Shown here: positions 32,492 to 34,983 of the stretch, in pieces
How positions within the stretch are numbered: the stretch's first letter is position 1
Layout of the letters: every line of letters starts with the position of its first letter
Source: Anaerolineaceae bacterium
Lineage (GTDB): Bacteria; Chloroflexota; Anaerolineae; Anaerolineales; Anaerolineaceae
DNA: 64,000 nucleotides
Direction: 5' to 3'
NCBI GenBank assembly: GCA_012839565.1
Contig: DUMZ01000007.1
Span: forward strand, 1 to 64,000
The notes under the pieces: model-generated
Seen by the model: only the letters and a program-made list of their open reading frames with translations
What the model was told of the DNA's origin: nothing
Databases searched by the model: none
Translations under genes and position numbers: made by a program

Positions 32492-34117
32492 TTAAACTGG
32501 CTTAACCATATATAACTCACCCAGTTCAAAACCACGACCAGCATAATAAGCCCGGGTACCTACCGCCGCGATAACCGCAATCTTTTGATAGCCATGGTCT
32601 TTGGCAATCTGTTCCGCGTGCGCGATAAGTGCCTTACCAATGCCAGCGTGCTGCGCCATACCTTCCTGTTCGGTACCGACTTCCAAAGACTGTCCATAAA
32701 CGTGCACTTCACGAATAATGGCGGCATCTTTTAAGTCATCAATATCCAAAGCGTTATCATCATTCGGCAAGGAAAGCCGCAAAAAACCTGCCAGTTTATC
32801 ATCAGCAGTGTTATAGGACAGAAAATGTTCCTCCGCGCCAGCAGCCTGATAACTGAAGTCATCATAAACCAACTCGCCAGCTTCCATTCTTTGTTCCCGA
32901 ATTTCTCTGCATCGCACGCACTCACATTTTGTTCCGCGCCGTGCCATTTCCACGGCAACGTCCTGACGTAAACTGGTATTGCGCGACCCTTCAATCACAT
33001 TCGTGCTGGGAATATCGCGAATAACACGGTTGATGCGACAGTACCTTGGAACCATCGTCTTGATATCCGCCAAAAGATTTAACAAGGTGGTTTCATCGTA
33101 AGGTTCGTAATCGCCATCCTGCCAAATCCCATAAAGTGGCGCGCTGTTCAGCAACTGACATGGATAGATTTTTAGTTCATCGGGATTAACGCCATTTTCT
33201 TCCCACAAGCGCTTAAAATCTTCTTTGTCAAGGTCTGGCGTAGACCCTAACAGGTTGGGCATCCAGTGGGCTGTAATTTTAAAGCCCGCTTCGCGCAATA
33301 AAGCTGTTGCTTTTAAGGTTGTCGCGCTGTCATGCCCGCGTCTGTTTTTCTCCAATATCTCATCGTTCATGCTTTGAATGCCGATTTGAATTTTTGTCAC
33401 GCCTTGTTTACGTAAAAGCTTCAATTCTTCGGCATTGATTAAATCTGGACGGGTCTCAATCACCAATCCGACGTTCCGTTTTTCAGCGTTCACATTTCGC
33501 GCCTGAACGTCATAAAGCGACACATCACCCTGGTCGTCCAACGGGTTTTCACCATTCATCGCCTCAAAACAACGTCTTAAAAACCATTCCCGGTAATCTT
33601 TCGGATAAGCCGACCAACTCCCCCCCAATATCAGCAGTTCAATCTTCTCCGTGGGATGACCAACGTCATGCAAGGCTTTCAGGCGCGAAGCAACCTGACG
33701 ATAAGGGTCAAATTCATTTTCCAAACCCCGTCTGGCTCCGGGTTCATCCGGTAAATAGCTTTGTGGCATTCCTTCAATGGTTGGACAAAACACACACTCC
33801 CCAGGGCAAGGATGCGGCTTGGTAAGCACCGTCAACGTGGTAACACCCGATAGGGTGCGAATCGGCTTCATGCGAATTTTTGCCAGCAGAACTGGGTCTT
33901 CTTCCCAAACTTCCTGTTCAACCAAACGTCGATAAGCTGCCACCAGAGCGTGCTTAGCGAGAAAACCGGCACCACCCGGCAAGGGATACATGCGCTGGGC
34001 GTTGCGCACCTCTTGCCCATCACGCACTGCTTCAAGTACTTTTCGCGCAAGGGCAAGTTCTTCTTCGGTATAAGTTCGTTTTTTACGCCATGCTTTGCGT
34101 ATTTGTTCATCTAACAT
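32492..34117 (-). CDS. elp3: Elp3-type radical SAM/GNAT tRNA U34 carboxymethyltransferase
   Basis: TVLTKPHPCPGECVFCP radical SAM motif, RNTSLRQDVAVEM, C-terminal GNAT (QHAGIGKALIAHAEQIAKDHGYQKIAVIAAVGTRAYYAGRGFELGELYMVK). Confidence 0.93.
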   Translation of the reverse strand: MLDEQIRKAWRKKRTYTEEELALARKVLEAVRDGQEVRNAQRMYPLPGGAGFLAKHALVAAYRRLVEQEVWEEDPVLLAKIRMKPIRTLSGVTTLTVLTKPHPCPGECVFCPTIEGMPQSYLPDEPGARRGLENEFDPYRQVASRLKALHDVGHPTEKIELLILGGSWSAYPKDYREWFLRRCFEAMNGENPLDDQGDVSLYDVQARNVNAEKRNVGLVIETRPDLINAEELKLLRKQGVTKIQIGIQSMNDEILEKNRRGHDSATTLKATALLREAGFKITAHWMPNLLGSTPDLDKEDFKRLWEENGVNPDELKIYPCQLLNSAPLYGIWQDGDYEPYDETTLLNLLADIKTMVPRYCRINRVIRDIPSTNVIEGSRNTSLRQDVAVEMARRGTKCECVRCREIREQRMEAGELVYDDFSYQAAGAEEHFLSYNTADDKLAGFLRLSLPNDDNALDIDDLKDAAIIREVHVYGQSLEVGTEQEGMAQHAGIGKALIAHAEQIAKDHGYQKIAVIAAVGTRAYYAGRGFELGELYMVKPV

Positions 34118-34123
34118 AATCAC

Positions 34124-34129
34124 ATTGTA
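34124..34129 (-). promoter_or_regulatory. -10 element 6 nt upstream of elp3 ATG (leaderless candidate)
   Basis: Minus strand TACAAT-gtgatt-ATG. Confidence 0.6.
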
Positions 34130-34215
34130 ACCGTTTATCCAATGAATTTCTACACAGCGAATGTCAGATTGTAAAAGAAATCGTCTTCCGTTATACGCCA
34201 GTCGGTCAGGTGAAG

Positions 34216-34221
34216 TACAAT
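34216..34221 (+). promoter_or_regulatory. -10 element 6 nt upstream of Trm9-like gene ATG (leaderless candidate)
   Basis: TACAAT-catgtc-ATG. Confidence 0.55.
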
Positions 34222-34227
34222 CATGTC

Positions 34228-34983
34228 ATGCCGAAAATGAGACCAGAAACCAGCCAAAAACTTCTCGCGTTGAATAAAAGCTTTTACGAGAACAACGCCC
34301 AAAGTTTTTCTTCAACCCGCTACGCCATCCAGCCCGGTGTGCGCAGTCTTTTGCCGAGTATGCTAACGGCCAGGACGATTCTAGACTTAGGTTGTGGAAA
34401 TGGTAATCTAGCCCTTGCCTTGGATAAAGCCGGTTTTTGCCATGAATATTTTGGTGTGGACAACAGCCAGGGCTTGATTGATGACGCCATTTCCGCCAGA
34501 GATAAACGCATCGCCAAACGTGCCCATTACACATTTCAAGTTCTTGATTTAGGCCAAACGCCCTGGCAAATAGCTGCAGACCGACGTCAGTTCGACATGA
34601 TTGTTTCTTTTGCCACCTTGCACCACATTCCCAGTCTCAGTCTGCAACAAGAATTCTTTATGCAAGTTGCCAGCTTACTGGAGACCAATGGCACATTTAT
34701 TATTAGCTGCTGGCAACCCCTCAACAGTCCCCGCCTGGCAAAACGCGTTCAAAACTGGGATGTGCTTGATATCGACCCAAACGAACTTTCAGAAAGCGAC
34801 TTACTCCTCGACTGGCGCGCGGATAACCAATGTGAGACCCAAAACTTGCGCTATGTGCATCAATTCACGCCCGAGAAATTAAAAAGCCTGGGTGAAACCG
34901 CAGGCTTAATCTTAAAAGAAACGTTCTACAGTGATGGCAAAGAAGGCAATTTGGGTCTTTACCAAATCTGGCAAAAACCCTAG
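34228..34983 (+). CDS. Class I SAM-dependent methyltransferase, Trm9/ABH8-like
   Basis: FYENNAQSFSSTRY, ILDLGCGNGNL, GVDNSQGLID, FATLHH, FIISCWQ, LRYVHQFTPEKLKSLGETAGL, GLYQIWQKP; start ATG 34228 (6 nt after TACAAT), in frame with the ORF start at 34210. Confidence 0.75.
   Translation: MPKMRPETSQKLLALNKSFYENNAQSFSSTRYAIQPGVRSLLPSMLTARTILDLGCGNGNLALALDKAGFCHEYFGVDNSQGLIDDAISARDKRIAKRAHYTFQVLDLGQTPWQIAADRRQFDMIVSFATLHHIPSLSLQQEFFMQVASLLETNGTFIISCWQPLNSPRLAKRVQNWDVLDIDPNELSESDLLLDWRADNQCETQNLRYVHQFTPEKLKSLGETAGLILKETFYSDGKEGNLGLYQIWQKP

What the first reader, a model, noticed from the sequence alone, without database searches (positions are those of the whole stretch)
32492..34983. Divergent elp3 and Trm9/ABH8-like methyltransferase: candidate eukaryote-like wobble-U34 (cm5U to mcm5U) pathway in a bacterium
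Seen: a full bacterial Elp3 (radical SAM CPGECVFCP plus C-terminal GNAT) is divergently paired, 110 bp apart, with a SAM methyltransferase. The methyltransferase carries motifs that line up along its length with yeast Trm9 as I recall it: FYxxxAxxFSxTRY, GCGNG, GxDxSxGLI, HH, a CW after the late strand (FIISCWQ vs ALIYCW), Y(V/Y)HxF/Y...L...AG, and a C-terminal Q(I/V)W/AQK-like end. Established: in eukaryotes Elp3 makes cm5U34 and Trm9 (with Trm112) methylates it to mcm5U34; most bacteria instead use MnmE/MnmG. A bacterial partner that completes the Elp3 product would be notable. Inference: the two proteins act in sequence on tRNA U34.
Basis: partly seen in the sequence, partly recalled or inferred. 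Interest (0 to 1): 0.8.

Follow-up and report, generated by a model that had tools for sequence, protein, structure and literature searches.

The report
Bacterial Elp3–Trm9 wobble-uridine gene pair
This bacterium carries, side by side, the two enzymes that eukaryotes use to build and then methylate a chemical tag on tRNA's wobble uridine, and the same pair recurs in many other bacteria, where this tag has not been thought to exist.

Summary
The window (an Anaerolineae-class Chloroflexota MAG) has a complete elp3 and, 110 bp away and divergent, a class I methyltransferase (MTase) that belongs to the Trm9 family by profile, tree and three invariant Trm9 active-site residues. In 251 Chloroflexota genomes, 44 of 45 with elp3 have this Trm9-like gene and 0 of 206 without elp3 do. 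In 40 of the 44 it is divergent and close to elp3. MnmG never co-occurs with elp3 (0 of 45; 100 genomes have MnmG). The same divergent pair occurs in Patescibacteria, Fermentibacteria, Myxococcota and the Dehalococcoidia, apparently including Dehalococcoides, source of the model bacterial Elp3 structure. Elp3 and MTase trees mirror each other (r = 0.93). Fungal Trm9 nests with archaeal relatives inside this prokaryotic family. The best reading is a bacterial cm5U to mcm5U34 pathway replacing MnmE/MnmG, with MnmA adding s2. A 2017 review says bacteria lack detectable homologues of Trm112-partner MTases; a 2020 review lists mcm5U only for archaea and eukaryotes. Untested: the nucleoside, and Trm112 dependence. 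One Trm9 catalytic residue (Y243) is replaced here.

The parts
32492..34117 (-). elp3: radical SAM + C-terminal GNAT, 541 aa, with an N-terminal extension of about 85 aa before the solved Dehalococcoides core
   Evidence: TIGR01211 483 bits; PF04055, PF16199, PF00583; PDB 5l7j E=3.5e-109
33785..33808 (-). radical-SAM cluster motif C104-PGE-C108-VF-C111
   Evidence: translation and residue map
32528..32875 (-). GNAT (lysine acetyltransferase-like) domain of Elp3, with E471 and Y525 equivalent to DmcElp3 E386 and Y441
   Evidence: PF00583; residue map
34118..34227 (.). 110-bp divergent intergenic region shared by the two genes
   Evidence: sequence; divergent arrangement in 40 of 44 Chloroflexota genomes
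34228..34983 (+). Trm9-family SAM methyltransferase, 251 aa
   Evidence: A3 profile E=7.5e-41; hhalign to Patescibacteria/archaea/fungal Trm9 E=1.5e-46; tree; model pLDDT 91.5
34318..34320 (+). R31, equivalent to yeast Trm9 R29 (FSxTR)
   Evidence: conserved in fungi, archaea and almost all bacterial members; mutant data in PMC5372719
34390..34404 (+). SAM-binding motif GCGNG, residues 55-59
34621..34626 (+). H132-H133; H133 is equivalent to yeast Trm9 H115
   Evidence: H133 invariant in all groups
34798..34815 (+). D191-LLLD-W196, aligned with Trm9 DVxVPW
   Evidence: D and W aligned and conserved across groups
34849..34860 (+). R208-Y-V-H211, aligned with Trm9 RYYH; R208 is equivalent to R241, V210 sits at Y243

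Best explanation
The two genes form a bacterial version of the Elp3-Trm9 wobble-uridine pathway. Elp3, acting without other Elongator subunits, uses a 5'-deoxyadenosyl radical and acetyl-CoA to put a carboxymethyl group on C5 of U34 (cm5U34). The Trm9-like enzyme then moves a methyl group from SAM to the carboxylate, giving mcm5U34. In Lys, Gln and Glu tRNAs the bacterial thiolase MnmA would add 2-thiolation (mcm5s2U34). The pathway stands in for MnmE/MnmG, which these genomes lack. Shown by computation: both proteins' family identity, conserved catalytic residues, near-perfect co-occurrence, conserved divergent adjacency, co-inheritance, and exclusion of MnmG. Inferred: the nucleoside produced, the order of steps, the tRNA set, any Trm112-type partner, and co-regulation from the shared 110-bp region.
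For: Family: the profile from the window family has Yarrowia Trm9 (5cm2) as second-best PDB match, E=3.5e-11, aligned through the C-terminal D....W and RYxH motifs. Against Trm9/archaea/Patescibacteria, hhalign gives E=1.5e-46 over the full length. That linking profile finds Trm9 at E=2.4e-65 with the next PDB family at 2.8e-25, and the U34 MTase CmoM only at 5.7e-10. Tree: fungal Trm9 nests with archaeal members inside Patescibacteria (98), next to the Chloroflexota clade (99), with 18 other MTases outside (92). Active site: R29, H115 and R241 of Trm9 are R31, H133 and R208, invariant in 32 Chloroflexota-type sequences; mutating them cuts tRNA affinity and kcat in yeast (PMC5372719). Linkage: 44/45 elp3 genomes versus 0/206 others; 40/44 adjacent and divergent; MnmG 0/45 versus 100/206. 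Adjacency was not used to find the MTases. In the prokaryote-wide scan, 41 loci hold both genes, 40 divergent, and MnmG is absent from 27 of 28 such genomes searched. Mirror-tree r=0.93 over 56 pairs; permutation maximum 0.21. Own genome: no MnmE or MnmG; MnmA and a Trm112-domain gene present.
Against: No nucleoside or enzyme data. Trm9 Y243 is V, A, C or I in the window's subfamily, and the N271 position is unclear (G243 aligned, N241 two residues away), so the substrate could differ in detail. Fold search does not single Trm9 out: 5cm2 ranks 18th by E-value, although its TM-score normalised to the target (0.80) is the highest of the 50 listed. Trm112-domain genes are also common in genomes without the pair and were missed in three genomes with it. 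The Fisher values ignore relatedness. One elp3 genome (G192) lacks the MTase.
Confidence: 0.78

Rival explanations
1. The MTase acts in the Elp3 pathway but not as a cm5U carboxyl methyltransferase: in the Anaerolineae-type subfamily it methylates another derivative or position of the same tRNAs.
For: Y243 replaced and N271 region changed in the Chloroflexota-type group, whereas archaea and most Patescibacteria keep both. This group is a separate, well-supported clade (99). Linkage to elp3 is equally strong for this reading.
Against: R29, H115, R241 and the D....W and YxH positions are invariant or nearly so, and the position of the gene next to elp3 is the same as in the Trm9-like Dehalococcoidia pairs.
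Confidence: 0.14
2. The MTase is a CmoM-like enzyme methylating cmo5U34 to mcmo5U34, and its link to elp3 is indirect.
For: Same chemistry on a C5 carboxylate at U34 in bacteria (established knowledge of CmoM). A weak CmoB hit appears among generic MTases.
Against: The family profile finds Trm9 at E=2.4e-65 but CmoM only at 5.7e-10. Co-occurrence is with Elp3, the maker of cm5U. CmoA/CmoB were not surveyed.
Confidence: 0.03
3. A generic small-molecule or rRNA methyltransferase that happens to lie next to elp3.
For: Generic Methyltransf_23/31 and weak UbiG matches head the Pfam and NCBIfam lists. The fold search is led by assorted MTases.
Against: 44/45 versus 0/206 co-occurrence, divergent adjacency in several phyla, mirror-tree r=0.93. 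The Trm9-specific C-terminal motifs are absent from the 18 other MTases used as outgroup.
Confidence: 0.02

Closest known systems
Eukaryotic Elongator (Elp3) + Trm9/ALKBH8-Trm112 pathway to mcm5(s2)U34
   Same: Elp3 with both catalytic domains and conserved active-site residues; MTase homologous over its whole length with three of five tested catalytic residues invariant
   Different: No Elp1/2/4/5/6 is expected (literature, PMC13315578: numerous bacteria have only Elp3; not searched here). The thiolase is bacterial MnmA, not Ctu1/Ncs6. Y243 replaced. Trm112 dependence unknown. The genes are adjacent and divergent.
Archaeal Elp3 + Trm9 (Haloferax volcanii, Sulfolobus solfataricus; PMC2584109, 2008)
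   Same: Two-gene version without other Elongator subunits; the genes are clustered in S. solfataricus; archaeal members group with fungal Trm9
   Different: Archaea use Tuc1/Ncs6-type thiolation. In the one archaeal locus seen here with both genes (L094) they are co-directional, not divergent.
Bacterial MnmE/MnmG pathway to (c)mnm5(s2)U34
   Same: Modifies C5 of the same wobble uridines; shares MnmA for s2
   Different: Different chemistry and unrelated enzymes; never found together with elp3 in the Chloroflexota set
CmoM (cmo5U34 carboxyl methyltransferase)
   Same: Methylates a C5-linked carboxylate at U34
   Different: Far weaker profile match than Trm9; acts on a CmoA/CmoB product

Membership tests
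Elp3 | TIGR01211 above curated cut-off, radical SAM plus GNAT | tested here: met
   483 vs 350 bits; PF04055, PF16199, PF00583
Elp3 | radical-SAM cysteines and KAT residues (DmcElp3 K77, K193, E386, Y441) | tested here: met
   C104/108/111; K159, K281, E471, Y525
Elp3 | makes cm5U34 in tRNA | not testable with these tools
   needs tRNA mass spectrometry
Trm9 | groups with Trm9 to the exclusion of other class I MTases | tested here: met
Trm9 | active-site R29, H115, R241 (yeast numbering) | tested here: met
   R31, H133, R208, invariant in the Chloroflexota-type set
Trm9 | active-site Y243 (one of five residues known from mutants; not by itself family-defining) | tested here: not met
   V210 here; V/A/C/I in the subfamily; Y in archaea and most Patescibacteria. 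A substitution within the family: the RYxH motif is kept.
Trm9 | active-site N271 | tested here: inconclusive
   alignment puts G243 there, N241 lies two residues away; N in archaea and 17 of 19 CPR-type sequences
Trm9 | works with Trm112 | tested here: inconclusive
   a Trm112-domain gene is in the genome, but such genes are also common without the pair
Trm9 | converts cm5U34 to mcm5U34 | not testable with these tools
   needs enzyme assay
MnmE/MnmG pathway | MnmE and MnmG present | tested here: not met
   MnmG absent; MnmE-profile hits that were read are Der, Era and HflX, and no hit reaches the cut-off
CmoM | closer to CmoM than to Trm9 | tested here: not met
   Trm9 2.4e-65 vs CmoM 5.7e-10

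The most novel reading that the evidence does not exclude
Several bacterial phyla replace MnmE/MnmG by a compact, horizontally mobile elp3-trm9 divergon and carry mcm5U/mcm5s2U34, nucleosides not listed for bacteria. Eukaryotic Trm9 descends from this elp3-linked prokaryotic family, and its bacterial members may work with a minimal YcaR-type Trm112 or with none.
Probability: 0.6. Interest if true: 0.82.

Novelty: new variant of a known kind. Interest (0 to 1): 0.72.

Why it matters
It gives a specific prediction for what bacterial Elp3 makes in the end, which the papers I could read leave open, and places mcm5U in a domain from which it has been missing. A 2017 review states that no bacterial homologues of Trm112-partner methyltransferases could be detected and that bacterial Trm112 has no known function; this pair supplies a candidate homologue and a possible partner. 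It also shows clean replacement of one wobble-uridine system by another within a phylum, and suggests a prokaryotic origin of Trm9 linked to elp3. It is testable at once in cultured Dehalococcoides.

Tried and rejected
Chance adjacency of a generic MTase: rejected by co-occurrence and adjacency statistics. UbiG/UbiE or other NCBIfam equivalog: all far below cut-off. Fold search as a discriminator: uninformative, since many MTases match equally well. Trm112 co-occurrence as support: inconclusive. First impression that the Dehalococcoidia have elp3 without the MTase (A1 profile): wrong; the Patescibacteria/archaea/fungal profile finds a Trm9-like gene next to elp3 in all 20. Sulfate-reductase-like (CysH) gene between the pair in several relatives: not consistent, taken as neighbourhood noise. 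A Patescibacteria-wide survey was not possible. Plasmid search: no match. The 2016 DmcElp3 and 2014 archaeal Elp3 papers are not held, so I cannot say whether they mention the neighbour gene. Literature searches returned no title or abstract describing a bacterial Trm9-Elp3 pair; subscription papers and preprints are not covered.

Full report
Observation. The window lies in a Chloroflexota MAG of 1.97 Mb in 20 contigs, 95.6% complete; its relatives are Anaerolineae. Elp3 (32492-34117, minus) is full length, above the NCBIfam cut-off, with radical-SAM, linker and GNAT domains, a 1e-109 match to the solved Dehalococcoides enzyme, and every catalytic residue checked is in place. The MTase (34228-34983, plus) starts 110 bp away on the other strand.

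Which methyltransferase family. General libraries give only generic MTase models. A single-sequence PDB search puts Yarrowia Trm9 (5cm2) low, but as one of the few alignments running into the C-terminal half. A profile of the family lifts 5cm2 to second place, E=3.5e-11, with D....W and RYxH aligned. Trm9 homologues were then collected from the solved sequence and compared by hhalign: 99.5% probability, 189 columns. A scan of prokaryote genomes with the window-family profile brought in intermediate relatives in Patescibacteria and archaea. Their C-terminal sequences read almost like Trm9 (for example DVFYPW...RYVHCF). A profile of these plus fungal Trm9 (A3) aligns with the window family at E=1.5e-46 over the whole length, and finds Trm9 at E=2.4e-65 in the PDB with nothing else better than 2.8e-25.

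Phylogeny. With 18 unrelated MTases as outgroup, the Trm9-like set separates at 92% SH-aLRT. Fungal Trm9 sits with archaeal members (99), inside Patescibacteria (98), and next to the Chloroflexota-type clade (99). A bootstrapped tree with the Dehalococcoidia added keeps this arrangement; it was rooted by choice on the Anaerolineae-type group.

Active site. Yeast Trm9 R29A, H115A, R241A, Y243A and N271A lose tRNA affinity and activity (PMC5372719). In the window protein, R31, H133 and R208 are equivalent and invariant in 32 Chloroflexota-type sequences. Y243 is V210, and N271 is uncertain. Archaeal members keep all five, and the Dehalococcoidia proteins printed show RYY(H/Y) and a late RNI motif, so the window subfamily is the divergent one at the C-terminal end.

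Co-occurrence. The same 251 Chloroflexota genomes were searched for the MTase, Elp3, MnmG and Trm112. With the A3 profile the matches are bimodal: 43 genomes at about 107 bits or more, matched into the C-terminal part, and all other matches at 92 bits or less and mostly confined to the N-terminal SAM-binding region. The 44th genome (G096) is found by the A1 profile. All 44 have Elp3; only one Elp3 genome, G192, lacks the MTase. Table: 44/45 vs 0/206, Fisher p about 2e-48, which overstates because genomes are related. MnmG: 0/45 vs 100/206.

Adjacency. In 40 of 44 genomes the two genes are divergent within 2.2 kb, 32 of them within 500 bp of matched sequence; the four exceptions are on other contigs or far away. 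Because the MTases were found by their own sequence, adjacency is an independent result. In the genome scan, 41 loci hold both genes, 40 of them divergent, in Chloroflexota, Patescibacteria of at least eight named lineages, Fermentibacteria, Myxococcota/Deltaproteobacteria and Ignavibacteriales. MnmG is missing from 27 of 28 of the genomes searched; the exception, an Ignavibacteriales MAG, carries a Patescibacteria-like pair.

Co-inheritance. Over 56 loci, the Elp3 and MTase distance matrices correlate at r=0.93 (1000 permutations, maximum 0.21). Odd placements are shared: the Myxococcota pair sits with Aggregatilineales in both trees, and the Ignavibacteriales pair with Komeilibacteria. This fits transfer of the two genes as a unit.

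Rest of the pathway in this genome. No MnmE: no hit reaches the cut-off, and the best hits are Der, Era and HflX. No MnmG. MnmA is present. A small Trm112-domain protein is present on another contig.

Mechanism. Elp3 makes cm5U34; the Trm9-like enzyme esterifies the carboxylate to mcm5U34; MnmA thiolates the Lys/Gln/Glu tRNAs. The Elp3 step rests on published work on bacterial and archaeal Elp3 (PMC6367351, PMC13315578); the methylation step rests on homology, residues and linkage; the nucleoside is untested.

What is known. Archaeal Elp3-Trm9 was predicted in 2008, with clustering in Sulfolobus, and a 2020 review ascribes the methylation in archaea to Trm9-Trm112. For bacteria, a 2017 review found no MTase homologous to the Trm112 partners and no function for bacterial Trm112, and the 2020 review assigns only cmnm5U, mnm5U and nm5U of this group to bacteria. 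Two JGI entries in this family already carry the automatic name TRM9, so the similarity has been seen by annotation software; I found no paper that draws the pathway conclusion, with the limits stated under Tried and rejected.

Verdict. Family membership and functional linkage: very likely. mcm5U as product: likely, about 0.78, lower for the window's own subfamily than for the Dehalococcoidia because of the Y243 change.

Noticed in passing
window 40632-40725 (-): A selenocysteine tRNA (UCA anticodon; ARAGORN and Rfam RF01852), 6 kb from the pair, overlapping the mechanical 5' end of the ORF at 39181-40707. Mammalian tRNA-Sec carries mcm5U34, so this tRNA is an interesting candidate substrate.
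   Followed up: no
window 10879-11218 (+): Bacterial class A RNase P RNA (Rfam RF00010).
   Followed up: no
L027, L032, L033, L035, L039, between elp3 and the MTase: In several relatives a CysH-like (PAPS/APS reductase family) gene lies between elp3 and the Trm9-like gene.
   Followed up: partly
Chloroflexota survey: 106 of 251 genomes have neither Elp3 nor MnmG at the thresholds used; what they put on C5 of U34 is unexplained.
   Followed up: no
G192 (C7:15932-17305): The only one of 45 elp3 genomes without a Trm9-like gene; it also lacks MnmG.
   Followed up: no
L087 / G270: Ignavibacteriales MAG with both MnmG and an elp3-trm9 pair of Patescibacteria type: lateral transfer or a misbinned contig.
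   Followed up: no
L093: Gracilibacteria ORF of 515 aa that starts like this MTase (FSSTR) and continues into an unrelated C-terminal sequence, possibly a fusion.
   Followed up: no
L128-L145: Dehalococcoidia Trm9-like proteins keep the RYYHL(Y/F) region and a late N but have a changed FSxTR region (WYxxR), the reverse of the Anaerolineae pattern.
   Followed up: partly
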